Assembly (NCBI GenBank): GCA_004369045.1
Contig: ML213522.1
Coordinates: 375,775 to 439,774, forward strand
Reading direction: 5' to 3'
Source: Heliocybe sulcata
Lineage: Eukaryota; Basidiomycota; Agaricomycetes; Gloeophyllales; Gloeophyllaceae
Length of the DNA stretch: 64,000 bases
The translations under genes and the position numbers were made by a program. The notes under the pieces were generated by a model. It saw only the letters and a list, made by a program, of their open reading frames with translations, was not told the DNA's origin and ran no database searches. Shown piece after piece: positions 30,848 to 64,000 of the stretch (its first letter is position 1; each line of letters opens with the position of its first letter).

Positions 30848-31258
30848 TGATGACTATCGAACGAAGATACTTCCGCCAAGGGACCGGACATCGGAAGACG
30901 GTACAACGGAGTTGGACGAGCTGCACTCGGTTTGCAATTTATACCTTTTGGTCATTCCGAGACTGAAGAGTGTTTGTCAGGCTACTCCTCTCAAGTGTCG
31001 GACACCCTCGCTCACCGTTCCCTGAACAGGCTCATCCCGAAGATGGACTCCGTTATCACGGATGTTAGATTGATCTCTTAGTTTGCTAATACCTGTACTC
31101 CGAAAATACATTATTTCACGGTGCATTGCGCCCGTACTGAAGAATGCTTATGCTTGGCCGCCGCCGAGAGGAAATTACTAGCACGTGAGGTTTCCCTGTT
31201 AGTGCGCCTGCCCCGAATCCTAGCCTCGCATGAGCGAATACTGCACGCCTCTCCGTCC
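30848..31258. other. Intergenic region upstream of the cation exchanger
   Basis: About 410 bp without a recognisable gene. It should carry the exchanger promoter. An in-frame upstream extension to 31121 exists, but its sequence is not conserved-looking. Confidence 0.45.
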
Positions 31259-33924
31259 ATGGCATCCCGAGGTGCATATAGGGCTATACTCGTAGCATTG
31301 CTGGTCGTCAACTGTCTCGTCTTTTCTCAAAGCCGCTATGGACAGACGTCTGAGGCCAAGTCGGGTGTCCTCAGCCGGGCGTTGTTAAAGAGAGAGCGGT
31401 CGTCAGACCCAGCTTGGACTTTGGATGGCCACAATGAGCAGGTATGTAAATGCTGTAGCTGTATGTCCTCTCTATATGCCCTGACTCCTATACCGCAGTG
31501 CTTTCCGGTGGAGGTCCCACTGGACCAACAATGCTCCCATGTTCGGACGATGTGCCCGGAATCCGACTCGTTCCTCTCCTTGCAATACCTGCGCTCGTAT
31601 TTCTGTGCGACGCCATCAACACGTCCATTCGTCTTTACTGGCATGATCGTATGGCTTGTCTTTCTCTTTTCAACGCTTGGAATCAGCGCCTCCGACTTCT
31701 TCTGTCCGAATCTGGCGACCATAGCGCAACTCTTCGGCCTGGATGAGAACGTAGCTGGTGTTACATTCTTGGCATTTGGAAACGGCAGCCCAGATGTTTT
31801 CTCCACATACTCAGCTATGCGTTCAGACTCGGGCAGTCTGGCCATCGGCGAACTCCTCGGTGCAGCGTCGTTCATCGTCTCCTGCGTTGTAGGATCTATG
31901 TGCATCATCAAGCCGTTCCAGGTGGAGCCGATCCCATTTCTGAGGGATGTTGGCTTCTTCACGGCGGCGGTCACGCTTCTGATCGTCATACTTCACGATG
32001 GAAGGCTTCACGCTTGGGAGGCTGGCAGTCTCGTGGGTCTGTATTTCCTTTACGTGATCGTAGTCGTCGTTGGGACGTGGTGGGAGAAACGCCGTACCCA
32101 GCGACGTATGAGAGAAGCTCTGATTCGCTCCGAGTACAGAGAAGACGAGGTGCCTCAAATGCCGTATCATGACGAAGAGCCATATCCCGATGACCGTAAG
32201 TGTTGAGGTATCTCAGTCAATCTATACTAATTGTGCGTAGCCTCGCCGTCTCACGAGAGCCGCCAGAACTCGCTGACTGTACCTATCACGACAAGGCCGC
32301 GGGCCGTCTCCCATCCTGAGCCTCCTCGGCTAGGTCTGCACACCGATCTCCCACTGCGCGCCCAGTCTAGGTCGCCGTCTCCGTCACCGAGACTGACCCA
32401 CATGCCATCATTCTCGCTCATCGGGGCTCTCGAGTTCCGGCAGGTGGTATCTTCTCTCCAACACCAGGCAGCCAGCCCCTCACTCAACCTGTTCGAAAGT
32501 CCGATGACACCGTATGTCGGTGGGCGGTATTACAGTCACAGTCGATCCATGTCTAGACCACATACGCCGTTGCGGAGCCCTCTTGTCCTGGATGGGCAGC
32601 ATGAGGCCAACCCTTGGGACGATTCTACGCTCGCGCTCCCGCTGAGTGACCGTTCCCCAGAGCTGAATAATGACCCCCGGCGCGCGATGTACTCGGATAC
32701 ATCCCTCCCCCTTCCTGACGGAGCTCGGAGTCCGGTGCCGCGAATATCGCACACACCTGCGTCGCCCACCTCGGAGGCGGATACAGAGTCCCAGCACCAT
32801 GTTTCACCCACGCGTCGCGAACGTCTGTTGCACATCCTTGGACGGACGTACCATATACTCTTCCCAACATTGCATCACTTCAGGAACAAGACATTTATCG
32901 GCAAAGTAGCGGCGCTCTTTGCAACTCCCGCTGTCATGGCGTTAACGGTGACACTGCCCGTGACGGTAACGCCCTACGAGCACGGCGGGCACTCAAGAGA
33001 GAAGTCCGTTGGGTGCGATTCAAGGCTGCTGGATTTTGAAGAAGACGGTGTCGAACGGACGCTCATCGCCGAAGAAGAGGTGCAGGAGGAAATGCACGAG
33101 CTCAAGTTCAACAAGTGGCTCATGGCTGCGCAGTGCATATGTGCGCCGCTGTTCTGCGCTGGGGTTCTATTCAGTAGGTAGACGTGTCTTTCCACGACGC
33201 GATGCAGAAGGACTGAATGAGCGGCTTCAGGTGGTACCGAGCAACAGTTGTGGCTGCTGCTCGCAGCGGGTGTTGCGGGGTTAGCCTGTGCGACGATCGT
33301 CGCTGTATTCTCTGATAGGGGTGAACACCCCACCGCTCTCCTGGCGCGCTGCATGATGGGCTTCTTCGTAGCGGTAGTCTGGATTATGGCCATTGCGGAC
33401 GAAGTGGTGAACGTTCTCCGGGTATGTACTGTGCCGTGTCATGTCTTTGCTCATCGCTTATAAGACTGTAGACGTTCGGATTTATCTTTGGATTGTCCGA
33501 TGCTATCATCGGACTAACGATCTTTGCTGTCGGCAACTCTCTGGCCGATTTAGTCGCAAACATGAGCGTGGCTGTATGTTCTTTATTCTCCTTTCTTTGA
33601 TGAAAGCGGCACTCACGTGTCCGATTCCAGGTTTTCGCTCCGATCATGGGCTTTTCTGCCTGTTTCGGTGGCCCCATGCTCAACATGCTTCTAGGTGTCG
33701 GGATATCAGGATCCTACATGATCCATCTTAGAGAGAAGCCATACGATCTGCACTTTTCGACGACGCTGCTAGTCAGCTCCGCTGGGCTGCTGGTAATGCT
33801 GATATTGACCCTGCTTTTCGTGCCTTGGAATGGCTTCTATCTCACGCGGAGATGGGGCATATTTCTGATAATGTTCTACACGACGATCATGATCATTAAC
33901 ATGATTGTTGAGACGCGCACATAG
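31259..33924 (+). CDS. NCX-superfamily cation/Ca2+ exchanger (NCLX/SLC8B1-like)
   Basis: Membrane antiporter moving Ca2+ against Na+, K+ or H+. The start at 31259 gives an uncleaved or signal segment (AILVALLVVNCLVFSQS). A Cys-containing luminal stretch follows (QQCSHVRTMC, SYFCATP). The first alpha repeat is VTFLAFGNGSPDVFSTYSA (about 31752-31820), with the GNGSPD core that coordinates Ca2+. After several TM segments comes a long cytosolic loop rich in Ser/Pro (about 32230-32820). TM segments resume near 32910, and the second alpha repeat is GLTIFAVGNSLADLVANMSV (about 33508-33573). Then VFAPIMGFSACFGGPMLNML follows and the end is IINMIVETRT-stop at 33924. Five or six introns. The layout resembles yeast YDL206W and animal mitochondrial NCLX. 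Organelle and counter-ion cannot be told from sequence. Confidence 0.92.
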
Positions 33925-36690: not shown

Positions 36691-39102
36691 CTAAATACTC
36701 GTCTCGCAAGGCTCGCACATGGTCACAGTGCTCGGCGCCAGTCTGACCGTCGCCGTAGAAGTGACAGTCGACAATACGGTCCTCGTAATCGCCGCTACCG
36801 TCACCGACTTTGTTACACTCCCGACTGTAACCGTGGGCGCAGGCGGACAGGACGTGACACAATCCGTCCGCGTCGCAATCTCGGTCTCCGTATGCGTAAT
36901 CGTGAGGGTGGACAGTGTGTGCGTCCGGGTGATGGTGACGGTGCTGAGAGTCGTGATATTGGTCTCTGTCGCTTTGGGCGGCGGGATAACGAAGGAGGGA
37001 GGAGGCAGGACTGGAGTACCCGGTCCCGTTGAGATGATCGACGGAGGCGGCAACGCAGCAGGAGTCTCATCGGCTACTGGGGGCGTAAGCACAGCTTTAT
37101 AGGAAGACGTGTCTGCTTCTGGCATTGCTGGCACCGGCAAGGTCGGAACCAAGGTTCCTGGTACGGAAGGAGGCGTAAGAACGGAGGCATTCTCCATTGG
37201 TGGCGGGAGGATCTGGTTCTGAGGGATCGATGGCGGCGACAGTGTACCAGGAGTCTCTCCAACGACTGGCGGCCTAAGCACGCTTATGCTGGAATTGGCG
37301 CCCTGTTCTGGTATTGCTGGTACCGGCAAGGTCGGAACCAAGGTTCCTGGTACGGAAGGAGGCGTAAGAACGGAGGCGTCCTCCAGTGGTGGCGGGAGGA
37401 TAGGGGTTTGAGGAATGGATGGCGGCGGAAGAGTAGATGCCTCCATATCTGAAGGTGCTGGGGAAGACAGTGTTGGGACACTCGTCCCCACCGTCGGTGG
37501 GGTGAGAATGGGCGTATCGAACACCGAGGCTGGAGGACTTGATACCGTCCTCGTCGTCCTCTCCGTGACAGTAACTTCTGGAGGAGTGAGGGTGGTAAAC
37601 ACACTCTCGATCAGAGAAGGCGGAGCGAGCGCAGGTGTCTCTGCGCCTGGGGCTGTAGGAGGCGGAAGGGCCGGCGTCTCGGAATCTGTGGGTGTAGCAG
37701 GTTGTAGGATGGGCGTGATTGCTGTCCTCAGAGAAGGTGGTACAAGGACGGGTGTACCGGACACTGAATCTGGATGAACCGGTATTGTAGTGCCTCTCTC
37801 CGGGATACTAATACTGGGGGGAGTAAGAGTACTGATGATAGTCTCCGCTGTCGGGATTGAGTGCAGGGTAAGAATCGATGGCGGTGTCCCATCGGGAATG
37901 GAAGGAGGCGTGAGGGTTCGAGTTTCGGAATCGGTGTGCATGAGAGGAGGTAAGGTAGGAATAATCTTGACATCCACAGAGGGTGGAACAACAACCAGAG
38001 TATCCGACTCTGGCAACTCTATCGAAGGTGAGGGAAGGATAGATATGGGCTCGGTCGGCAAAGACGGGGGTGTTAAAGTCGCAGTGTCGGTGGGGATAAG
38101 GCCGGAAGGAGGCAAGGTAGGGACACTTGTCTGAATGGGAGAATGAGGAGTGAAGAGGGATGTCTCATGCCGCTCAGATACAGTCGGAATCTGCAATGTG
38201 GTGTTCGTAGCCTCCAGATGCGGGAGCGTGGGCGTGATGTCCGATGCGGATGGTGGTGTAGGGACCGACACACTGCGACCTTCGATAGGCGGTGGCAGAG
38301 AAAGTGTGGGTATATCTGAGACCGTAATCGCCGGAGGAGGGAGCGTAGGAATGGATACCTCTGAGAACAGGGGTGGGATTAGGACTGGGACAGAGGCACC
38401 TGTTATCGCCGGTGGGCTCAGCACCACCGTCTCCGTACCTACTGGCGAAGGAAGATCCGTGATAGGTGTTTCTGCACCCGAAGGCGGTGGCAGGGTCGGT
38501 AGCTCTGGTGTCTCTGGCGTCTGCCTCTCCGTACTGGGTACTGCAGATGTTGGTGTACCAGTGGCTACGCTGGGCGTCTCGCCATATTCCACGGGGATTA
38601 GGGGGATAGGGATTGGAGGAGGAATGACCAGGTCTGTCATGATACCTGGAGGAGGCAGCACAGGAGGTGCTGGTAGAACAGCCGTGGTGTTCTCTCTCGT
38701 GCCTGGGACTGACGACACGAGTGTTGGTGAAGAAAGCGTGTTCATAGTGACATCCGGAGTAAAAAAGCAAGAGACACTTATTGGCGTGGGCACCTCTCCC
38801 GGTCGCAGAGAGGTAAGCCTCGGTTCAATGCGCGTCTGCGTCTCATTGCAGTGCGGCGCATGTACCGTCAGTGTTTCAGACGCAACAGTCCACTCTTCTC
38901 CGCAGGGCGCGTAGAGGAGCGTCGGATTGAACCTTGTGGCCGAGTTGAATCTGCCATCGGTAGCGATACGCGTGATTGATGTGGTACCATTTGCTAATAG
39001 AGACTGAAGACAGCCAGTCGTCGACTGCCCCCAAACCAGCCCCGCGAGATAGAGGTGGAAAAGAAGAAGATACAGCTGGATCGCTGCGTCGGACGGAGAC
39101 AT
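36691..39102 (-). CDS. Secreted Pro/Thr/Ser-rich wall-type protein, 803 aa
   Basis: Uninterrupted frame from 39102. The signal peptide is AAIQLYLLLFHLYLAGLVWG. A short Cys-containing head follows (CLQSLLANGTTSI, APCGEEWTVA, CNETQ), with N-glycosylation sequons. About 550 residues of irregular repeats come next, built on xxTLTPPSxP, xxILPPPxx and xxVLTPPSVPGTLVPTLP. The C-terminal 120 residues are Thr/Val-rich (TVTITRTHTLSTLTITHTE) with CVTSCPPAP and end CEPCETSI-stop. No GPI-type hydrophobic tail is seen. The architecture suggests a stiff, heavily O-glycosylated extracellular spacer or adhesin. The opposite strand is also open in places owing to codon bias and is not a gene. Intronless, unlike most neighbours. 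Confidence 0.8.
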   Translation of the reverse strand: MSPSDAAIQLYLLLFHLYLAGLVWGQSTTGCLQSLLANGTTSITRIATDGRFNSATRFNPTLLYAPCGEEWTVASETLTVHAPHCNETQTRIEPRLTSLRPGEVPTPISVSCFFTPDVTMNTLSSPTLVSSVPGTRENTTAVLPAPPVLPPPGIMTDLVIPPPIPIPLIPVEYGETPSVATGTPTSAVPSTERQTPETPELPTLPPPSGAETPITDLPSPVGTETVVLSPPAITGASVPVLIPPLFSEVSIPTLPPPAITVSDIPTLSLPPPIEGRSVSVPTPPSASDITPTLPHLEATNTTLQIPTVSERHETSLFTPHSPIQTSVPTLPPSGLIPTDTATLTPPSLPTEPISILPSPSIELPESDTLVVVPPSVDVKIIPTLPPLMHTDSETRTLTPPSIPDGTPPSILTLHSIPTAETIISTLTPPSISIPERGTTIPVHPDSVSGTPVLVPPSLRTAITPILQPATPTDSETPALPPPTAPGAETPALAPPSLIESVFTTLTPPEVTVTERTTRTVSSPPASVFDTPILTPPTVGTSVPTLSSPAPSDMEASTLPPPSIPQTPILPPPLEDASVLTPPSVPGTLVPTLPVPAIPEQGANSSISVLRPPVVGETPGTLSPPSIPQNQILPPPMENASVLTPPSVPGTLVPTLPVPAMPEADTSSYKAVLTPPVADETPAALPPPSIISTGPGTPVLPPPSFVIPPPKATETNITTLSTVTITRTHTLSTLTITHTETEIATRTDCVTSCPPAPTVTVGSVTKSVTVAAITRTVLSTVTSTATVRLAPSTVTMCEPCETSI
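37117..37430 (-). repeat. 189-bp internal tandem duplication in the Pro-rich gene
   Basis: Block starting TTCTGGCATTGCTGG at 37117 is repeated from 37306 (TTCTGGTATTGCTGG) with a period of 189 bp, i.e. 63 codons. Both copies share the long run around GGTTCCTGGTACGGAAGGAG almost unchanged. Confidence 0.85.
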
Positions 39103-40019
39103 TTTGGACTTCCACGGCGTCCAGACATGTCTGATTTGATATCCGAGAGCCTTTTATGACTGGAAACGGAGAGCAGTGCGCTGAATTGAACAGCGCACAT
39201 CGGCTTGCCCAACAGGCGTATGCCCGTGGAAACCTGCAAGATCAGCGCAGCTAATGCTTCAATGCGATCAGTATCCTGAGCTGTCTCTGATTTACCTACA
39301 AACCACTGAGAACATCTTCATAGGTATCCGTGAAGGAGAGCAGTAGTTCGCATTGAGCTGGCTACGTTCAAGCCTTGTCGAGTCGCCGGGGCGCGTGCTC
39401 TGAGGTCTGGTTCTTGCCGGGAAGACACGTTCAATGGCTCGGTAATGAGAGACTCATTCACGCCGAAGCCGAGAAAGATACTTCCGTGCTTGGATCCATC
39501 GTGGACGTCCAGGAGCCCTTCTGAGCGTGCAATGTGCCTTCTCAGACACTTGTGTGAATGAGGCACCACATACTATACGTACGGGACCAGACTTCTTGCG
39601 GACATGCAATGCAGCAGAATCTAGGCAATTAGCAGAAGGCAGGCGCCAGAGTACAGGTCCTCGTACGAACTTGCAGTGTAGACGATTTGGCTCGGAAGCC
39701 AGTGTTCTCACGCTCGGAAGCCAGTGTTCTCACCCACGGCGCTTGATACGGTGCTTACGACAAGCAATGCGCTCGAGGTGTGCCGCAGACATAATATTCA
39801 AGACTTCGTTTAGGGAGATGAAGTACAGCCATAGCACCCCGTAGCACCCCGAATTGCGAGCGTAGGTGCAGCCTGCTTTTAATATTCGCAGCGGAGGGAA
39901 AAGGATCGATCAGTTCTGCACCAGACACGACTGTAGCCCTCTGATTCATGATCCGTAAGCCTATCATTACTGGTGTGCGCGCAGTGGAGTAATTTCCCTA
40001 CATTCTAGACTAATGAATC
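39103..40019. other. Intergenic region
   Basis: Contains the promoter of the Pro-rich gene, and a perfect 22-bp direct duplication (39690-39711 and 39712-39733, GCTCGGAAGCCAGTGTTCTC plus AC). A minus-strand segment near 39440-39500 (GSIFLGFGVNESLITEPLN) is protein-like but isolated. Confidence 0.4.
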
Positions 40020-48125: not shown

Positions 48126-51100
48126 ATGAGTCCAACAGAGCTAGACAGTCCCAATGGAGGTGCAGCTCGCGGTCCAGTAAACTCTGCAGCTCAATCTCGC
48201 CTGCAGAGTATTACAGCTTCTGTAGTCCGTCCCATCCGCAATGCCTTAGGATACCGGGAGATGAAGTCCCCTGAACCACCTAAGCAAATCGATCCAACCA
48301 AAGGCACCTACGTGCGTAGCGTGCATGATATCATTACCAGCTTTCCCTGATAGCCCTGCAGCGCGCATTTGACAAATTAGCACAAGAACGGGAAACAGAT
48401 GACAGAGACTCCAACCACGTTGTAAGTATTCTTCCGCTCTGATTTTTGCTTTCCTGACTGTCGCTCGATCGCAGTTTTTCGCAGGACTTAGGACTATGTC
48501 TGATCTGCCTGATGATTCGCCCATGCGGCTGAAATACAATTCCACCTTCATCAGGTTGAGTGAGTTGCTACTCTCAATCTATCCTGCTTCAGTCTGATCA
48601 TTTCGATCGGCAGTAAACAACGTTCATCAATCTCGTGGCGCTCCCAGAACGCTGTACCCTAACAGTCGCCAGCTTGGGCATAGCCGTCCCTATGTTCAGA
48701 CTGTTGCCGATCGTAATCCGGCTCCTCAGCTTCCTGCCATTTCTCAAGTCTTCGACGACCTGCTCAGGGCACGTGTTGTACGTGTGATTTCCGAAGCATG
48801 GTATGGTTTAGGGGAGCTCTCTAACGATTTGACCAGGCTACTGCTCATCAGAGCTCTGTTTCCGGCCTTACCTTTGCCTTTTCCACCTTGATCTCGGTAC
48901 GTCTGGTAACTCATAGAAATCAAAATGGTTTCCCTCAAATTTTGCGATTGCCACAGCTGTGTTTGTATCGCACTGATTCGCAAGATGAGCAGTGTAATGA
49001 GACATCCCCTTACCTCGACCTATCCCCCCTCTATGGAAACAGCCCACAGCAGGAAGAACATGTTCGTCAGATGGATGGGCATGGAATGCTTTCTCCCGAT
49101 TGCTTTTTCGAAGACAGACTCATGTTCGTGACGCCGGTCGTCCAAGCCCTCTTGATTCTGTGGAATCGGAATCACAATGTGAGCAATTCATAATGCCCAG
49201 GTTTGGCTGACATATTTACTCATCGCAACGATAAGTACATTGCTGGTCGATTACTGTCGAACAATCAGCACAACCGATGGATAGATCCTTCATCGGTCGC
49301 TCCTTTCGATGATGGGACTTTGCCGCCGCGATTGATCAGCCAGGACAATGAGATCTTCGATAAGGCTCGGACGATCAATTGTGCCATCTTCAAGAACGTT
49401 GTCATCGAAGACTTCCTCAAGGGCATAGTGGGGGTACCAAGCGTCGGAAGCAACCTTAGTCTCGATTTGCTGGGAGTGAGTTCTTTCAATATATTGACGG
49501 TTTGCTCAGCTCACGAATCGTCCGTACCTAGGATGTCGCAGGCACCACTTCTCGCACGGACGTAGTGGAACACAAATCGTGCCTGGAATTCAGCCTTCTC
49601 TATAATGTGAGCTTATCAATGTCTTGCAGAATCACGAGTTTGACAGCTGTCTCTCCGAAGTGGTATACTTTCGCATCCCAAGACGACATAGCCTGGATGC
49701 AAAGTGCGCTGCAAACCAATTTCGTGGGGAAGCCTGTCGATGAAGTACGATACTTTTATGTATGAAGGCGACGCCGATGCTGACCTCAGATACGTAGATA
49801 ACCCTCGAAGATTACAAGAATGCCTTTGATAACTACAGACATGAAACCGATCTTAACCGAAGACGGCGTGAATTAGCTGGGTATGTGCCCTGACCGCCGC
49901 CGCACGTTGCATTCCACTTATTGGGCACCAGGCTCCCTCGCGGAGACAATGGATTCGTCGACGACAACGATCTGGCCGGAATTCTGCAGAATGCGACGCG
50001 CTCGGTAGCTGGAGCACCGCGAGCACAGGGAGTGCCAAATTGCATGCGTATTCTGGAGCTAGCGACTATGCAGCAAGCGCGGGACTGGAACGTCTGCTCT
50101 TTCAATCAATTCCGAAGATCTTTGGGCCTCAGACGTTCGTTTTATCTCCCAATCTCTTGGTCCGCCCTGTTGACGAAGAAGACAGCTTTAGCTAATTTCG
50201 AGGAATGGAGCAGATCCGGCGATGCTGCGGCTGCTGCCCAGCGTCTTTACGGCAATATCGAAAATTTGGAGCTCTATGTAAGCTCTTGCCCGCACATTGA
50301 TTATCCTTCTTGTCATCTGCTGCGTAGGTCGGCCTTCAAGCTGAGGACGCTCCGCCTGGAGAGGGATTTGCTCTTGGCTACACAATGGTATCTACTCCTT
50401 CGGCTACGTCTTCTATATGCCACATTAATGAAACCGAAGATTTTCGGGCTTTTAGTCGACTTAGTGCGTCTTCGAGAATTCTTCGGAGACCTGTAGTGAC
50501 AGCGTGATTCCAGGTTAGCGCCCTCCGCGGCGATCCTCATTTATCTAAGTATACTCGTAAGCTCACTGTAACATAGAATGCCTCGCTCTTGTATCTAACA
50601 TTGTGCTAGGGGAACACCTGACGGACTGGGGTTATGATGAATGCATGACTAAATCTAGTATAGGAGCATTTGGCGCTGTACTTCCTAAAGGTACGTCCTA
50701 AGACCAATTGCCTCTACATTTTTATGACGTACACTTTCTTGCAGTTCTGATGAGGAACCTCCCTCATAACTATCCGTACGACAACACGTATGCGCTGTTC
50801 CCGTTTATCTCCCAGGATCTTCTAGACAAATGTCCAAATCATTCTCAACTCACGGAGCACTACCGTCGGGATAGACCATCTCTGACGAAGATCTTGCGGA
50901 CCCAAGAGGCCATCAAGGTGGTTCTAAATGATCCCTCGCACTACTTGACGCCATACAGGCAGAACCTCCAAACTGTCCTCGGTGGATATGGGTGCGTAGC
51001 ATACTTCCTCTAAGGGATGTCTCTGAGCCAGTGTGTCTGCCCCGTCTAGATTCCTTCTTGGATTTGATTCAGAGTCCATGTGAGTGGTGCTCTTAGATAG

Positions 51101-53883
51101 GGCGTGCAGCATCTGAACGTACATATCCGCTAGTCACGATGCAGATCTGCGCATGGTAGTTTTCTTCGTTCTTTTGCGGCTTTAGACCTCGAAAATTAAG
51201 CTGGTCTCCTGCAGGATCTGCACGCCCTTCTTCCGGACCGAGCAACCCTCTCTGTATACAGCCAATACTTTGCGAAGACCGCGGGCAAGATCATAGACGG
51301 TTTGAAAACTTCCGAGTTCGGTTCATCAGTTACTGTGTGGTTATCGTAAGATTGACGTGCTCTATAGTTCCGTAGACATCGTCGAAGACGTCATTGCTGC
51401 AACCTGTGCCAAGTGGATCTGCGATACCATGGTAGGCTATCGACAGGTCAAGTTATCTCCTGGGGCTGATATAGGTAACGTACGCCAGTACGGTAATCCG
51501 GCACGGAAGGAGCCATCGACTGAAGAAGTGTTCCGTCTGTTATGTGGGCTATATGCGTGAGTCATCATCGCAATATCAAACAAACCGTTAGCTCACAATC
51601 ACGGAAAGCTTCGTATTCGACCTCAACGACCCGGAACAAGCCTGGAGTGCACGGCGTAAGGCAATTGGTGACAGCAAGACGCTTATAAGCCATATTGAGA
51701 GGCAACTGAAGATGACGTTAGGATCGTCCGAAGAGGTGCGTACAATATCGAAAGCATGGTCATTGCAGCGTCCCTGACGGTGCCTAGACTCTCGCGGAAC
51801 GAGTACGTCGTATTTGGGCCGAAATCAGGGGCGAATTCGAAGTCGGCAAATTATCCACCGTCCCTTTCCTGACCAGACTGGCCATGAAACATACTGACAC
51901 ATTGGGAAAGTTCGGAAACTGGAGCGACATGCAATCAGCATTCGAAGCCCAGAATATTGGACTTTTCCATGACAAGTCCCGGCAGGATACCAGTCGACCT
52001 CGTAGCGTGCGTGAGCAGGAACGTAGGGCAGACAAGATGAAGATGTTCAGAGAAGATTTTCAAAAAATCAGGATTACCGCCAACATACTGGGTTTGTGCA
52101 TAATGTCCGTCCCACTCGTCGAAGGTACGCATCCCGGCTTCTTACGTGAAATTTGAATATGAAGGGCTAAAAATGACGAAGTCTGCGCTCATGCTGTCGC
52201 GTTCTACCTCCAGGACGCAAGAAGCGTGGAAAGGGGGGAGATTGATAGGCTTTCCCGACAGCAGGTGACTGACAAGGCCAAAATCATGGGATACATCCGG
52301 GAATCGCAAAGTAAGTCCAGTTAGATCATCCCTTTCGCTTGCCCCCGCTCAACAGAGACACAGGACTGCGACAGCCGCCTGGGCTTTTCCGTGTCGTCCA
52401 TGGTGCGGGACCTGACGGTATTACAATCACACAAGGAGGGGGGCAGCCGGACCTGAAGGTATACGATGGCGATGTCGTATTTGCCAACTTCGCGATGGCG
52501 TTCACGAATGTCCGTCACTATCTGCTAAGAATCTCTATCATGTTGACTTGCGATTCGTAGCCTGACGACACTACCATCAATCCAAGTCGCCAGACCCCTG
52601 CTGTACAAGGTCTAGGATTCCATGCATGCCCTGGGATAAAACTTGTCGAAGAAGTAAGTGAGCGCATTGCTCTGCTACCGGCACGTGTCTCATGGCTGTC
52701 CCCTCCGAAAGGTCCTGCCCGAGGTGCATTCTGATAGGCTGTGATTGCGCGGCGCATTGCATTAATATCCTCGGTAGCTATTCAAATCCATCTTTCGTAT
52801 GGAAGGCCTCCGGATCGTCGACGGTCAAGTAACGGCTGGAGGACCCAAGACGCCAGCTAGAGCCGTACGCATTCTGCTCGCAGCTGCTCTTCTTGTATTC
52901 TAATCGTTTAGTCCTCAATAGCCAAGCGGAATTCCATCCAGGAAGAGTCAGGCCCCGCTCTCTTTGCGTGTCAATGTGAGTGTACGCCTGGATTGAACAT
53001 GACCACGCTATCTGACGTATGTTACTTCGCAGTTTACTGGGTACGTCAAGTTGTAGTGTCGCGAGGTACCACCCATCTTACGGAAATTCCTTAGTGTCTA
53101 CAAACCTGAGCCCAGGTGGAAGGAGCCTGAGAATCTGCTCAAGAGCTCCAAGAGATGGCAGGTCATCCTGAGAAGGATCAAGAAATGGGCGATCGCATTA
53201 TGTGCTCTGGTCTTCTTTGTCTGTACGTACACCCCTTATGCAGCTGCTACGCAGTCTGACACTGGTTCTGGCCTCAGGTCTCCTGGCTCTCCTAATCCGA
53301 GGCTTCCCAGCGATTCAGCTTCCATCTATGCCACACGTCCACATGCCTTCTATGCACATCCCGTCTCTACACATACCTACATTTTTCTCAAGCCCACCTA
53401 AGAACATGGCATGCACGTCCTGGACGGCCTCTGATCCGTGGCACGTGGAAGCTATTAAGGCAGGGCAGGACGGGAAGCCGGTCCCAATTGAGTACACCTA
53501 CCGGTCTCGCCGCCCGCACCGTCTCAGCGTAGTCGACGCGGACAAACGTGATCTGCGGATGCAGCTATTCGTGGATGGGGAGTCCAAGGGCCTCACTACC
53601 GCGTTCGACCTGGACAAGACGCTCGACTGCGGCACTGACTTGGCAAAATGCCTCAACAACAGATTCAGTGCAGGTGTTCTTGAGGTGCCACCGGGGAAGC
53701 ATAAGGTCAGGATAGAATGGGCGGGCGAAGGTGAGTGCATGCTTGTCATTTACGACAGCGGATAGGTGCTAACGGATGATGGCGGTGTTCTTGGTAGAGT
53801 TCATCCGTGGAACGGAGCACATTGATTGGGGCGGAGAGAAGATTCGTCGATTCCAGATGCAGCGGGAAGATTGCAATCCATAG
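48126..53883 (+). CDS. Psi-factor/linoleate diol synthase-type DOX-P450 fusion with altered haem ligands and a membrane-anchored tail
   Basis: Ppo-type enzymes oxygenate fatty acids in an animal-peroxidase-like haem domain and rearrange the hydroperoxide in a P450 domain. From MSPTELDSPNG, exons read PTKGTY...LQRAFDKLAQERETDD, GLRTMSDLPDDSPMRLKYN, GAPRTLYPNSRQLGHSRPYV, SGLTFAFSTLIS/LCLYRTDS, SPYLDLSPLYGNSPQ, NRNHN/YIAGRLLSNNQHNRW and CLEFSLLYN/WYTFASQDDIAW (intron 49607-49660). The family's distal His (THSLFRTD) is Leu at 48957-48959, and YRWH reads YNWY. The P450 half keeps the K-helix ESQR and GLGFHACPG with its Cys at 52627-52629, then LFKSIFRMEGLRIVDGQ. In phase through introns at about 52866-52922, 52978-53033 and 53041-53094, the frame continues SLRVNFTGVYKPEPRW, a TM segment (AIALCALVFFVCLLALLIRG), HMPSMHIPSLHIP and a globular tail ending EDCNP at 53881. 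Confidence 0.85.
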
Positions 53884-54738: not shown

Positions 54739-57700
54739 TCACATAATTATACACCATTTCCCTTTCTTTTTCTCCCTCTCCTCTTCAGTTTCCTTGTCAT
54801 TTTCCGTTACGGGGCTGCTGGAACTCGCAGCAAACTCTCCTTGCGCACTATCCAAGGACGCCCTGCCTCCTTGAGGAGACGTTTGCGTAGAGTGGAACCA
54901 TCCACCTGGGAAGAACCGAGACGAGGTGGCTGACTCACGCCTATCACGGCTCGTAGAATCCGCACCGGGTTCCAAGAAGGTCGACGACGTGCCATCAACT
55001 GTCTTTCCCTCGCCAGGAGTCCTGAACATAAGTAGTTTAGTTACATCGCACTGTATGCGCCTACGCGAGATGCTTACCTGTCCTCAGCGCCGGGGAATGG
55101 CTCCTCAGGAGCCTTGGCAGGTTCTGCACCGACCCCAGTCGATTTCTGCAGGTCATCCAGAGCTTCGGTCGTAAATGTATCACCTCCTTCAGCAGGTTCT
55201 GGACTAGCAGAAGAGGCATCAGTTGCCGCAGGTACGCCGTCTGCCTCCGCGGGATGGCCGCCTACTGCATCAGATGATGGGACCTCTTCAGTAACGATAG
55301 TAGGGATAGGGCTTAATTCTGAAGGAGGTTCATCTTGTTGACTAGTCTCGGGAAGAACACGCCCAGGAAGCTGTTCTAGCTGGGAGAGCTCCCCCTCCTC
55401 CGCCGGGGTCAAGCCAGAGCCCTGTCTCGTGACACTGTAAGATGGAGTCCAAGGAGATTTAGGTCTTTCCGGGACCTCCGAGTCTTGATTAACAGGCAAA
55501 TTGTCGACCGACTCAGCCTGGACGACCGGCTCATCCTGCAATTGAAGGTTGGGTCAAGATTCTACATTAGGTCAGCCATTGAGAAACATACGTGTTCAGC
55601 AGCAGCATGCAAGTCAGGGCTTCTGGTGACCGAATAAGAAGGCGTCCAAGGGGACTTGGGCCGCTCAGGGATTGAGCTGTCTGCAACTGGCAGGACAACA
55701 GTCGGAGGCTGTGATACAGGCTCCTGAAACAAGAAAGTGTGTCAAGTCTCAAACCATAACAGAGCGAGAGAGACACTGACGTCTGCGGGCAATGACTCTG
55801 CGGCGTGCTCAGGAGTCCTCGTCACGGAATAGGACGGAGTCCAAGGAGACTTAGGCCTCTCCAATGCTTCCCTTTCCACGAGAGGGGTCTATGACCGACC
55901 CTGTTTAGTCCTGTTCTTGGGACAAAGAGAATAAAAACTCACTTCAGGCTGCACAGTCCGTTCTGCTTGCGGACTCTGTTCGACTTCCTCGGGAACGGGA
56001 GTCTCCTCAATCAAGCCGGCATCGGCCACAGGTTCAGCTATGTCCTCGTTAGGTGCAGCGTCAACTGCGTCGTCGGAAGTGACATTTATTTGCACATCGC
56101 TAGCAGGTGTGATCTCTTCGACCGCCCCAACCGCCTCAGTGTCAGGGCTGAGGACGACCTGAGGGATCTCGGTCGACATTTCTTCTGCAGTGACCGCTGG
56201 AGGAAGAGATTCAAGCTGCTCAATTTCATGCTCCTGGCTCGCAATCTCTGGCTCTTGCAAGCCGGATCCGACTGTCGTCACGGAGTAGGATGGAGTCCAT
56301 GGCGACTTCGGCCTTTCTTCTTGGACATCGTCTAGGACAGGGGACAAGACACGACTACCCACCTGCGATTCGGGAGAATGAGAGGTCACCAGTAGAGGAT
56401 GAGAACATGGAAGCCTTACCTCATCTCTTTCGACACTGATCTCATTTGTGAACTGATCATCGGTGGCTAGTTTCTCCTCCGCAGGAGCGATCTCGGTCTG
56501 GTATTCGGTGAGAGTGACCTGCGGTTCAGGCTGAATAGCTTCGTCATCCTTTGCCTCAACCTCAGGGGGCGGCAACCGGGACAACTCGGCCAGCTCATCA
56601 GCATTATCCGCCACGCCTGTGCCGGCACCACCTTGGGTACTGACACTATAGGAAGGAGTCCAAGGGGACTTGGGACGCTCCTCCTCAGGCTCCCCTGGAG
56701 TCATCGGACCAGGTTGAGGCACTTCACCAAGGACGTTGGCCGGGTCCACGTTCTCTGGAGCGTCAACTTGAATAACCGGGGCGTCCGCTGGTGCAGACTC
56801 AGCCGTTTCCAGCTCGGACGGCTGCTCAGAAGCTGCAGTTTCCGATTCCGCAGCTGTCTCAATTTCAACAGGGGGTTCAACTTCAATTTCGGATGTAGTT
56901 TCTTCAGCGATAGTCTGGACGTCAACGACAGGCTCATCAGCAGCAACAGTAGCACCTTCAGCACCTTCACGTCCCACTGGGATGACTTCCTCTGGGGCAC
57001 GCTGACCATCTGTTGCAGGGTCCTCAGTAGCAACCTCAGTTTCAGGAGCTGGTTCCTCTACAATGGCCTCAGTTTCAGGAGCTGGTTCCTCTACAATGGC
57101 CTCAGTTTCAGCCAGGGGAACCCCTGCCAAGGCAGAAGCCGGCTCGACATCGTCTACAGAGTATCTGGCCTCAGCATCATCGGATACAGCTTCGACTTGC
57201 TCAGGAGCCGTTTCACTTTCGTTGACAGATGAAGTTTGGATAGTTGAACTCTCGTCCATGAGCGGGACCACGACGGAGTCCTCGACTCCCGGGACATGGG
57301 CCTCTTCGTCAACAATAGCCTCAAGCTCGGCCTCAGGAGCAGCCGGCTCAGTCGCGATGGCTGTCTCAGCCGAAGTCTCGTCGAGAACGGCTACTATGGG
57401 TTCTTCCTCCAGAGTAGCAGCGGCCTCATCATCTTTTACGGCGGCATCACCGGCCTCCTCCAAAGCTGCCTCCTGAATTGTCTCTTCCTCCGCGATCACT
57501 TTCTCCGTATCGTCTGCTGGCTGCTCAGGGACGGCTTCTTCCACCAGTCCCTCGACCTCAGGCTCCTCAGGTAGGGGTTCCTGCGGCGATGATTCTTCAG
57601 CTGCTGCTTCCTCGGTAGCTGGAGCCTCTGCTACTGGTTCTTCAGCCTCACCAGATACATGCTCTGCTTTTGCCGACTCTTCAACAGCAGGCTCATCGCC

Positions 57701-59691
57701 ATACGCCTCTTCCGCCGCGGGCAGTTCAGTCACTGGTTCTTCCTCAACTTCAAGAACCTCCGTTGCCAGAGGGACTTCCTCCGCCACCGGCTTTTTGGCT
57801 ACTAGCTCCTCCTTAACCCTCTCCTCGACTGCAGACTCCTCAGCAGCTTCTGCAGAGACCGGTGCTACTTCCTCCGCAAGAACTTCTTCAGGTTGCACCG
57901 GCACACCTTCCTCAGTGACAGAAGCTGCCTCAGGCACTTCCTCTGTGACTAGCGACTCAGATGAAGGCACAGCCTCGTCCAGGGCAGCAGAGCCTTCCGG
58001 CACCTCCTCGGATCCGCGTTCGCCCACCTCAGAATCATAGGCAGGCTCAGGGACAGCATCCTCATCCACAAGCTCCTGGGGCACAGGAACACCTTCTTCA
58101 TTTACAACGACGGGCTCCGGTGCTCCCTCTACAGGCCCGGGTTCCTGCGATTCTTCCTCGGCAGCGGAGGCTGCCTCGGGCAATTCTTGAGCGAGCGGTT
58201 CATTTGCATGAGGCTCAGCGATAATCCCCTCAGGAACAGGCACTCCTTCCTCAGTGACGGGGGCGGGTTCGGGTGCTGCTTCAACGGAGTCCATTGCGGC
58301 TGCATCGCCCGTGGATTCCTCAGCAGAAGCATCCTCTGGAATAGTAGCACCCCCCTCCGTGATAGGCGCTGGCTCAGGAGCTTCTTCAATGGGTGCCGGT
58401 GACGCTTCTTCGACTGCGCCCAGCTCAACCGCCTCAGGAGCAGGCGCGGAGTCAGGTAAGGCTGTCTGAATAGCGGAGCTGTGATCCATGAGAGGAACGA
58501 CGACCGACTCCTCTACAGCCGGAGTGGCCGTCTCTTCCTCAGCAGGAGCCCCACCTCCGGGCTCGGCAGTAGCATCAGTCTCTATCGCAGGCTCAGCTGA
58601 CGACTCATCCAGAACTGGGACGACCGGCTCCTCCTCCAACGTGGGCGCACTTTCTACTGCTTCGTCGATGGCCTCTCCAGAGGGCCCCTCGCCTGCTGGG
58701 TCCTCCGGGACTAGGACACCCTCCTCCAAGACGGGAGCAGGCTCTGATGTTTCTTCGACCGGTGCAGCTTCTTCGACTGATGCAGATTCTCCAGCAGGGA
58801 CTTGCTCCTCTGTTGGAGCGGAGACGGCCTCTTCCACTGCTGGAGACTCCTCAACAGCAGCGGCGGGGGAAGCTTCCTCCGCGACTGGCGCTTCCTCAGC
58901 AGAAGCGGTAGCCTCTTCTTCCAGAGACGTAGGCACACCCTCTTCCGTGGCCGGAGCCGCTTCGGGGGCATCAATCAGAGCTGACTTGACGGCTTCTTCG
59001 GCTGGCGCATCGGCCGACGCACTCTCAGCTGGAGATTCGACCACGTCCCGGGACGCATCTCCAGGGATTTCGTCCGTAGCATCTTGCGTCTCGGACTCAG
59101 CATGCGCCTCTTGGGCAGTTTCTTCTTTCACTTCTTCTGCCTGAGCAGGAACGATGGATTCCTACAAACATTGTATTGTTCAGCATCCATCTTTGCGAAG
59201 AGTGATGATAGAACGCTACCGCAGTAATCTCATCGGGCAACAGGGCTTCATCGATAGTATGATACGCGTCGCCATTTGCGACCTCCAGGCCAGCCGATGC
59301 CTCATCGCCTTCGGCTGGGGTCTCATTCCACGATTGATTGTGAACAGGTTTCTTGAGAAGAACATGCTTAGGCAGCTCATCTGTCTCCTCAGTCTTCCAA
59401 CGCCCCAAGTCAGACCCCTCAAAACACGCAGCCCAAATCACTCACAGAGGCGCTCAGTAGAGCATTGTGACCATTTAGTCCATTGGCATGCTCTCCTCCG
59501 TTAATATCCTCGACAGAAGTCTCCTCCGCGTGCTTCGCCGGCACATCCACCAACAACACGTTACTCTTTACGGCTTCCTTCTCTTCAGCCTCCAGTGCGC
59601 CGTTCGCGTGCTCGTCATTGACTTCTAACGCATCGATAAGCTCTCTTTCGTGTATCGCAGCTGCGCTGGCTCCTTCTTCTGCCACGGACAT
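54739..59691 (-). CDS. Large acidic repeat protein with five ERPKSPWTPSYSV motifs and a CaaX box
   Basis: Begins MSVAEEGASAAAIHERELID at 59691. A second exon (about 59220-59430) has LGRWKTEETDELPKHVLLKK. A giant exon (about 55889-59155) follows, almost wholly Glu, Ala, Pro, Val and Thr, in units such as EEGVPVPE, AEEVPEAASVTEEG and VVVPLMDHSSAIQT (the last duplicated as VVVPLMDESSTIQT). The motif (E/P)ERPKSPWTPSYSV(T/S) occurs five times (about 56660, 56290, 55840, 55650 and 55450), usually followed by a short acidic helix with ELxQLExLPP. Each of the last copies lies in its own exon. The final exon is Ser-rich, then a Lys run, and ends GKWCIIM-stop, a perfect CaaX prenylation signal. I infer a long, disordered, prenylated scaffold at a membrane. 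Family known to me only as uncharacterised mushroom proteins. Confidence 0.8.
57034..57099 (-). repeat. Perfect 33-bp tandem duplication inside the repeat protein gene
   Basis: CCTCAGTTTCAGGAGCTGG and the next 14 bases occur twice back to back (57034-57066, 57067-57099), encoding two identical 11-residue EEPAPETEAIV units. It must be recent. Confidence 0.9.
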
Positions 59692-61530: not shown

Positions 61531-64000
61531 TTACAGTCCTATCCAGCTGCTGCGCCCGCCCGGATTATGCAGACTCGTCTGGCCAATCTTGACAAGGCCG
61601 ATATCCGTCTTTGCCCAGTCTTCGCTTGATCGCGGGGGCGTTTCCATGCTCCTGTCAGCTGGAAACGGCAAGTCGATTGCGTCAACAACAGGGCTCGGCG
61701 GTGCGACAGGCGTCGCAGCAGGAGCTAGCCACGATCCGTGTCTGTTGACTACCGGGCCCTCCTTTGTCTTCTCCTTCTCCTGCGGCAGCGGAGCATTCCA
61801 CACAGGCAGGAACGACTCAGCATACCATTCATACCAGACACGCTGTCGGTTCGTCAATCGCCACATTGTCACCTGTAGCTCTGAGTTGCTCGGCAAATAC
61901 AAGGGTTCCTGCGTCCCATCAGGAGTCAATAATAACCAGGTACGGAAGTGGTCTACGAGTACCTTGAAGGGAAAGAATATGGGGAACCAGCTCAGCATAT
62001 CTCTGGATATCTGATCCTTTCTGTCGGGGTGGATACTGAGGCCCACGTTTCCGTAAAGTATGGCCTCGAAATAGCCGGCGAGCCCATGAAGGATACCGGC
62101 GTGTGGAATATGGAAAGTTAATCTTGTCGACCTCGTGTTATGACTATTTGTGAGCGGGAGACCTTTTGCATAAATAAACTTAGCCTTGGTCAGTGACGTA
62201 AGAAAACGATACTCGCCTCGAGAATCGAGAGCTGCATCTCTACGGGGATGCTCAAATTCCCAACATTCTTGAACTTGAGGACCGCAGCGGGCGGCGAGTC
62301 CTCCGCCACTGCCGCTAAGAAGATTCACAGCCTGGAACATCACCACATACGGTGTCTCCGAGGTCTTAACATCCCTCCCGGCCTGAGTCTCTTGATATAA
62401 TTTGGAAGAAGACAGCGGTGCGATATGCGCCGTGTATGAAGATGGTATTGATATGCCATCCGCTACCAAGGCGCACTGAGGTTTTGGCATCAAAGGAGCA
62501 AATGACCGTGCGTACGTTTCAAAAATCGCATGGCTCCGTCGAGACATTCCGGACTTAATTCATTGTCTCCAAAGGAGCCCAACAGCTCGCTTACGAGAAT
62601 ATCCACCTTCTCAGGCAGCTCTATCGCTCGCATATCACCAAATCTCAGATCGACTCTGGAACCCCATTCTCGCTGGAGTCTGTCTTGCAAGCTAGTAAGG
62701 AATATTAAGGAGACCCACAATGCACAAGACCTGTACAAACTTACGTCACGTATGCGTTCGGGTTCTTTTCCAACGCGTAGACAAACGCATTTCTGCGGGA
62801 GCGTTCGATGGCTTTCAAGGAACGAGCAACAAGGGGGCCTCTTCCAGCGCCTGCAACACATATGACTCTGTCGATGTTGAGATCACTCCCACTTGAGAGC
62901 CAGGTGCCTCACATCCTATCGCTTTGTGGCCAATCCGCTAAAGCTTGGTATATGGCCTGTTTTAGCCACGCTCAACACAAGATTTACGGCATAGCGTGTT
63001 TTCGTTACCTCCTCATAATTACGGTACTTCACTGGGTCTTGCTCGAACGTATGGTACGTCGCACTCGGAAGATTGTCCATTAATGGCTGGATATCTGCTT
63101 TAGCACGGCCAGTTTAGCTATTCCTAAGAAATGCGAACCTGTAAGGGGGCCTGCAGGTAATCCGTGTACCCTTGAGCGAAATTCTCTACGCTGCCGGGCC
63201 TTTGCCTAGCTTGGATCGCTGGACTTGTCTTCTCCAGATGCCGCACATACTGCAGGTATGCAGTTTCACCTCCCCGACTGTGCACGCCGGAGTTCGCTCC
63301 TTCAATGATTATAGCAGGGTGGTACTGCGTTTTGTCAGTCGCGCAGGTGTCTTACTTTAGCTGATGGGCCCACCTTCACAATGTCACGAATAAAAGCCTG
63401 AGTGCCTTTCGGCAGTACCGGGTATCCCCTAGCATTCGCGATGAACGTCGAAGCTGGAAGGAATATCGAATGCATGGGCTCAGCTGCCCATCTTTCCAAA
63501 ACCCCCGCGGAAGATGGCAGAGGGGGTGTCAAATCCAAGGCTAAGACCAGGAGTGTTAGCTTGCTTGCTCTGGAGATGAATGTCTACCTACTGAGACTGA
63601 GTCTGTGATCATAGTGGCAGATTGAGCGTATGACATCCCACATCTCCCAAGTGGCATTCAATTCTCCTTCCGAGGTCTTGGTGCTACTAGCGCTTTGGTC
63701 AGTGGCTGCAAGTTCGGCCTCACTTGTCGTGATCCGGATGTGGGTCGAGTGAGGTGTAGACGGGTCTGAGGCAATGAACGGGTCTGGTGTCGACTCCTGC
63801 GTAGACACCACGGGTGGTTTGAAGATCGAAGGGTCATATATCGGCAGGCGAACGGATAGCTGCATGTATGGTATACTGTCCAGGCATGCCCTCACCGCGC
63901 GGGCGTAGGACACGACGTGGGCGCGATTTCGGGGAGGAGGGAGTACCACGGTTTGAATATTCAGATACGACGCGTATGCCAATTCTTGCTGCAATGCCTA
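61531..64000 (-). CDS. PRMT5: Protein arginine methyltransferase 5 (PRMT5/Skb1/Hsl7), 5' part outside the window
   Basis: Symmetric dimethylation of arginines on histones and Sm proteins, cytosol and nucleus. The visible part covers the end of the TIM-barrel region ([16 protein letters not shown], about 63930-63980), [19 protein letters not shown], and [20 protein letters not shown] with [14 protein letters not shown]. The Rossmann methyltransferase core includes [12 protein letters not shown]-like coding (about 62840-62870). The double-E loop is [20 protein letters not shown] (about 62540-62600), which binds the substrate arginine. The C-terminal beta barrel has [31 protein letters not shown] and [10 protein letters not shown], then a Pro-rich end to the stop at 61531. 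The start codon lies beyond position 64000, so the gene is cut by the window. Several introns. Confidence 0.93.

What the first reader, a model, noticed from the sequence alone, without database searches (positions are those of the whole stretch)
48900..49700. DOX-P450 protein whose dioxygenase half has lost both haem-ligand histidines
With introns phased as read, the family's distal-His block (THSLFRTD) becomes LISLCLYRTD, with Leu (48957-48959) where His should be. The proximal YRWH motif becomes YNWY (exons meeting at 49606/49661). The surrounding family sequence (SPYLDLSPLYGN, NRNHN, SQDD.AW) is well kept and the P450 Cys and ExxR are present, so this does not look like general decay. A dead or Tyr-ligated dioxygenase domain joined to a plausible P450 would be a new twist: the P450 half would have to take hydroperoxides made elsewhere or use a new substrate. 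His ligands at these positions are from published work on PpoA/LDS as I recall it.
Basis: partly seen in the sequence, partly recalled or inferred. Interest (0 to 1): 0.78.

Follow-up and report, generated by a model that had tools for sequence, protein, structure and literature searches.

The report
Membrane-tethered P450 fused to dead dioxygenase
In this wood-rotting fungus, and in relatives spread across several groups of mushrooms, an enzyme normally made of two haem-carrying halves has lost the iron-holding residues of its first half while keeping those of its second and gaining a membrane anchor, so it probably works on oxidised fats made by other enzymes.

Summary
The gene (33 exons, 48126-53883, 1336 aa; Heliocybe sulcata by a 97% match) has Leu at the distal-His position (48957-48959) and YNWY for YRWH. 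None of 4 + 4 frame-keeping splices listed restores His; the public gene model agrees at both places. It belongs to one clade in a tree without the motif columns (32 of 80 rows, SH-aLRT 100). Of 33 clade rows, 32 have Leu at the distal site, 1 keeps the proximal His, 32 keep the P450 Cys and 33 the ExxR Glu. A transmembrane-like segment follows the P450 in 26 of 33 (0 of 23 ordinary fusions), then a predicted jelly-roll domain. Tyr ligation is not general: Ser stands there in 22 of 33. The two other DOX-P450 loci found in this genome keep both His but show no P450 Cys. Best reading: a haem-free pseudo-dioxygenase scaffold carrying a P450 that takes preformed hydroperoxides; activity is untested. 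Fusions dead in the P450 half are known; I found no report of this inverse in the open papers searched.

The parts
48126..53883 (+). whole coding gene, 33 exons, 1336 aa, 32 introns of 50-67 nt, all GT..AG
   Evidence: agrees with NCBI model P0001 except at two places away from the motifs: intron 50135-50185, which P0001 keeps as 17 residues, and aa 743-761 (51432-51488), which P0001 lacks
48888..48977 (+). distal-His block LISLCLYRTD (aa 183-192), split by intron 48897-48956; Leu186 at 48957-48959 replaces His
48897..48956 (+). intron 5, 60 nt, open in frame; retention would add VRLVTHRNQNGFPQILRLPQ
49601..49672 (+). proximal block YNWYTF (aa 363-368), split by intron 49607-49660; catalytic Tyr363 kept (49601-49603), Tyr366 (49664-49666) replaces His
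52106..52198 (+). P450 I-helix SVPLVEVCAHAV (aa 933-944), split by intron 52125-52181; NxxQ replaced by PxxE
52301..52365 (+). P450 ExxR motif ESQR (aa 979-982), kept, split by intron 52311-52363
52615..52635 (+). P450 haem-thiolate motif GFHACPG (aa 1049-1055), His1051 and Cys1053 kept
52712..52723 (+). 12-nt micro-exon (VLPE)
   Evidence: these residues are present in P0001
53186..53297 (+). transmembrane-like segment WAIALCALVFFVCLLALLI (aa 1146-1164), split by intron 53223-53277
   Evidence: mean Kyte-Doolittle 3.01 over 19 residues; place
53412..53880 (+). C-terminal domain with four Cys, predicted jelly-roll beta-sandwich, split by intron 53731-53797
   Evidence: the fold is predicted for the relative P0092, not for this sequence

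Best explanation
The protein belongs to a conserved basidiomycete subfamily of the fatty-acid dioxygenase-P450 fusions in which the dioxygenase half has become a folded but haem-free scaffold, and only the P450 half can still hold haem. It is held in a membrane by one helix after the P450, with a small jelly-roll domain on the far side. The P450 half takes fatty-acid hydroperoxides made by other proteins (in H. sulcata most likely the two paralogues that keep both His but show no P450 Cys) and rearranges or cleaves them. Shown by sequence: both His lost, P450 Cys and ExxR kept, one clade. Supported by prediction: COX fold and P450 fold retained (in a relative), transmembrane helix, jelly-roll domain (in a relative). 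Inferred: no haem in the first half, haem in the second, hydroperoxide as substrate, supply in trans, orientation in the membrane.
Against: No activity, haem content or expression was measured. The DOX half is relaxed compared with ordinary fusions (median identity 0.456 against 0.656; 98 of 170 near-invariant DOX columns are not kept at 80%). The NxxQ pair tied to LDS-type isomerase activity is PxxE here; both residues are kept in 7 of 33 rows. P0014 has lost the P450 Cys and its His, P0029 and P0045 the Arg of ExxR. P0015 keeps the proximal His. The paralogues were read from unspliced frames, so their missing Cys is less sure. At least two clade hosts also have an ordinary fusion with both His and the Cys (Leucogyrophana P0061, Infundibulicybe P0044), so the mirror-image split is not general. 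Seven of 33 rows lack a segment over the transmembrane threshold, and the positive-inside rule does not settle orientation (N-side more positive in 14 of 26).
Confidence: 0.55

Rival explanations
1. Both halves are non-catalytic: a membrane-anchored scaffold or sensor that binds a fatty acid or a partner protein, much as the haem-free peroxidase-homology domain is only a structural part of DUOX.
For: Both DOX ligands lost; NxxQ changed in H. sulcata; receptor-like layout with one transmembrane-like segment and a Cys-containing, often sequon-bearing domain behind it; DUOX1 and PXDNL show that this fold persists without haem ligand or activity (PMC7794343 and PMC8533639, passages).
Against: P450 Cys and the His before it kept in 32, ExxR Glu in 33 of 33 rows, which a pure scaffold would not need.
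Confidence: 0.22
2. The P450 half is active on something other than a fatty-acid hydroperoxide, for example as a reductase-fed monooxygenase.
For: NxxQ changed to PxxE; the N position is N, S, H, K, P, Q, M, G or D across the 33 rows.
Against: Its P450 half is homologous to those of the self-sufficient fusions and keeps HxC; 9S- and 9R-AOS types also lack NxxQ (PMC8097960 passage; PMC13049297 section 32).
Confidence: 0.13
3. The DOX half still binds haem through another ligand (Tyr366 in H. sulcata, or a nearby residue).
For: Tyr at the proximal place in this protein; catalytic Tyr kept in 29 of 33.
Against: Tyr is not conserved there (Ser in 22 of 33); the distal site is Leu in 32 of 33.
Confidence: 0.06
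4. Pseudogene or splice-model artefact.
For: Intron 5 is open in frame and contains LVTH.
Against: 33 exons with intact frame and GT..AG sites; 4 of 4 and 4 of 4 frame-keeping alternatives give Leu and Tyr; the loss is shared by relatives of other genera.
Confidence: 0.02

Closest known systems
Fungal DOX-CYP fusions (PpoA, 5,8-LDS, 7,8-LDS, 10R-EAS, 8/9-DOX-AOS)
   Same: same two-domain order, catalytic Tyr, ExxR, HxC; predicted folds (in a relative)
   Different: both DOX haem His lost, NxxQ changed, extra transmembrane-like segment and C-terminal domain
PpoC and Coprinopsis CcDOX1/CcDOX2, fusions whose P450 half lacks the Cys (PMC9579011)
   Same: one half of the fusion is dead by its residues
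   Different: the opposite half: here the dioxygenase ligands are lost and the P450 Cys is kept
DUOX1 peroxidase-homology domain (PMC7794343)
   Same: peroxidase-fold domain without the haem-ligand His, in a membrane protein with another haem-carrying part
   Different: the partner is an NADPH oxidase and the domain is extracellular; a separate fusion
PXDNL (PMC8533639)
   Same: inactive member of the peroxidase-cyclooxygenase superfamily
   Different: other residues changed; no P450 (recalled)
Jelly-roll folds such as C1q, CBM36/CBM6 and BcsB

Membership tests
Functional fatty-acid haem dioxygenase (Ppo/LDS DOX domain) | An_peroxidase (PF03098) homology and COX-like fold | tested here: met
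Functional fatty-acid haem dioxygenase (Ppo/LDS DOX domain) | proximal haem-ligand His of YRWH | tested here: not met
   YNWY; present in 47 of 48 ordinary rows
Functional fatty-acid haem dioxygenase (Ppo/LDS DOX domain) | distal His | tested here: not met
   Leu186; present in 47 of 48 ordinary rows
Functional fatty-acid haem dioxygenase (Ppo/LDS DOX domain) | catalytic Tyr | tested here: met
   Tyr363; 29 of 33 clade rows
Functional fatty-acid haem dioxygenase (Ppo/LDS DOX domain) | dioxygenase activity | not testable with these tools
   needs the protein
DOX-fused self-sufficient P450 (LDS/EAS/AOS) | Cys ligand and HxC | tested here: met
   GFHACPG; Cys and His each in 32 of 33 clade rows
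DOX-fused self-sufficient P450 (LDS/EAS/AOS) | ExxR | tested here: met
   ESQR; E 33, R 31 of 33
DOX-fused self-sufficient P450 (LDS/EAS/AOS) | Pfam P450 profile PF00067 | tested here: inconclusive
   no match at E 1 or better in this protein; many ordinary fusions carry no PF00067 label either; fold of the relative P0002 matches P450s
LDS/EAS-type P450 isomerase | NxxQ in the I-helix | tested here: not met
   PxxE; motif and its link to LDS/EAS from PMC8097960 passage
AOS-type P450 | allene oxide formation | not testable with these tools
   9-AOS types also lack NxxQ, which is no proof
DOX-P450 fusion family by descent | homology to such fusions over both halves | tested here: met
   one search matches; trees of each half, which held only such fusions and so do not test a wider placement
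C1q/CBM-type jelly-roll | fold match above background | tested here: inconclusive

The most novel reading that the evidence does not exclude
The subfamily is an oxylipin sensor: the haem-free dioxygenase half keeps its fatty-acid channel and binds a lipid without oxidising it, and the membrane helix couples this to the jelly-roll domain on the far side, with the P450 half destroying or making the signal. It would be a signalling protein evolved from an oxylipin-making enzyme.
Probability: 0.1. Interest if true: 0.87.

Novelty: new variant of a known kind. Interest (0 to 1): 0.68.

Why it matters
Fusions whose P450 half lacks the Cys are known; a conserved clade whose dioxygenase half lacks its haem ligands while the P450 signature is kept is the inverse, and shows that the two halves can part functionally while staying joined. 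Of the three DOX-P450 loci found in H. sulcata none appears to keep both halves, which makes supply of hydroperoxide in trans directly testable. It also gives a membrane-bound candidate for hydroperoxide processing in some mushrooms; the microsomal activity that cleaves 10-hydroperoxide in Coprinopsis had no known enzyme in 2022 (PMC9579011, passages). No row named Coprinopsis was seen among the matches, so it would be at best one solution among several.

Tried and rejected

Led nowhere or inconclusive: Pfam with 12 C-terminal pieces (best E 0.057 for one member, nothing for the window's) and PDB sequences (best E 0.34); fold search of the C-terminal domain gave generic jelly-rolls; the positive-inside rule is undecided (N-side more positive in 14 of 26 rows); whether P0015 stands outside the rest of the clade (support 21); Pfam on ten neighbouring open frames (2 of 10 matched); six papers naming Heliocybe sulcata, none on this by title and start of abstract. 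Chen et al. 2024 on basidiomycete linoleate dioxygenases is not held and was seen only in a reference list; it may touch this clade. No DNA of relatives was at hand, so no dN/dS.

Counting choices: P0001 was left out of the trees as a near-copy of the window protein, and P0081 came too late for them. One search used 33 clade rows (this gene, P0081 and 31 others) and 18 of the 48 ordinary rows, picked by me among those that keep the Cys; searches used 23 of 48. 'Ordinary' means only that the DOX half is of the usual kind: 47 of 48 have the distal His (P0067 has Arg), 47 of 48 the proximal His (P0052 is out of register), and 35 of 48 the P450 Cys. and the first counts used a 1315-aa model made before the last exon and the micro-exon were set right.

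Full report
WHAT WAS CHECKED. The coding gene was rebuilt exon by exon: 33 exons from 48126 to 53883 on the + strand, 1336 residues, one stop, all 32 introns GT..AG and 50-67 nt long. The best protein match is a heme peroxidase of Heliocybe sulcata, 97% identical over 99% of an earlier 1315-aa draft (P0001), so the window is taken to be from that species. P0001 and my model are identical through both disputed blocks. They differ at two places: P0001 keeps a 51-nt intron as 17 residues after aa 487, and lacks aa 743-761. P0001 also helped me to set right the last exon and a 12-nt micro-exon, so for those two it is not an independent check; the two motif blocks were modelled before I saw it.

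THE TWO HISTIDINES. At the distal site the exons meet as FAFSTLIS|LCLYRTD; at the proximal site as SLLYN|WYTFASQDD. I listed frame-keeping, stop-free introns at both junctions, allowing GT or GC donors and lengths of 35 nt or more. Four exist at the distal site and all leave Leu; four exist at the proximal site and all leave Tyr. Retention of intron 5 is open in frame and would add a 20-aa insert containing LVTH; no row of the 81-row alignment has an insert there, and I take it as chance.

RELATIVES. A search of public proteins gave 80 matches (only the 7,993 candidates sharing most words were scored). Aligned, 32 of the 80 carry the loss in some form and 48 are ordinary. Among the ordinary rows 47 of 48 have the distal His and 47 of 48 the proximal His. 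In a refined alignment of 33 clade rows the distal residue is Leu in 32 and Ser in 1; the proximal one is Ser 22, Thr 3, Ala 2, Tyr 1, Phe 1, Trp 1, His 1 and gap 2; the catalytic Tyr is Tyr in 29, His in 1 and gap in 3. The row that keeps the proximal His is P0015 from Leucogyrophana.

ONE CLADE. With the columns of both motifs left out, the 32 rows form one side of a branch (SH-aLRT 100, quick IQ-TREE, 80 rows, 491 columns). A tree of the P450 half alone gives the same split (99). Both are quick trees without bootstraps, and several clade rows have long branches. Whether P0015 stands outside all the others is not resolved (support 21), so I cannot say whether the distal His went first.

THE OTHER LOCI. 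Two searches of the genome find three DOX-P450 loci (both score only the best candidates). The two others keep IIH or VIH at the distal place and YRWH, and at the place of the P450 Cys I could read only Cys-less sequence (unspliced frames, so moderate confidence). H. sulcata thus seems to hold two fusions with a live first half and one with a live second half. This is not general: Leucogyrophana and Infundibulicybe also have a fusion with both His and the Cys (P0061, P0044).

READING. The best account is a haem-free pseudo-dioxygenase that serves as scaffold for a membrane-tethered P450 acting on hydroperoxides supplied from outside. The NxxQ pair of LDS and EAS types (PMC8097960, passages) is PxxE here and kept whole in 7 of 33 rows, so diol synthesis is unlikely in H. 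sulcata; 9-AOS types also do without it (PMC13049297, section 32 read), so allene-oxide or lyase chemistry is open. In DUOX1 a peroxidase-homology domain without the haem His, and without haem density, is part of a membrane enzyme (PMC7794343, passages), which is the nearest precedent for how the first half may work.

WHAT IS KNOWN IN PRINT. Fusions with a dead P450 half are described for Coprinopsis and Aspergillus (PMC9579011, section 5 and passages). That paper calls the distal and proximal His essential for binding heme and highly conserved in CcDOX1/2. I found no account of a clade with the reverse loss in the listings of ten literature searches (one search was on the species and on DUOX), which cover open-licence papers only; one relevant 2024 paper is not held. 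The roles of these residues in PpoA itself are recalled.

Noticed in passing
window 52712-52723: 12-nt micro-exon in the gene; its four residues are also in the NCBI model P0001 and, in like form, in family members.
   Followed up: yes
window 48897-48956: Intron 5 is 60 nt and open in frame with LVTH inside, echoing the family's distal motif; probably chance.
   Followed up: partly
L010 (G000:C22) and L011 (G000:C8): Two DOX-P450 paralogues that keep both His but show no P450 Cys; spliced models not built.
   Followed up: partly
P0067 (Ephemerocybe angulata): A fusion with Arg at the distal-His position but intact YRWH.
   Followed up: no
P0014 (Jaapia argillacea): A clade member that lacks the P450 Cys as well as both DOX His: possibly dead in both halves.
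   Followed up: no
window 31082-32203 (+) and 61534-62559 (-): Neighbouring open frames matching Na_Ca_ex and PRMT5_C, the 2 of 10 scanned frames with a Pfam match.
   Followed up: no
window 55892-59161 (-) and 36694-39153 (-): Long open frames of 1090 and 820 aa without a Pfam match at E 0.001.
   Followed up: no
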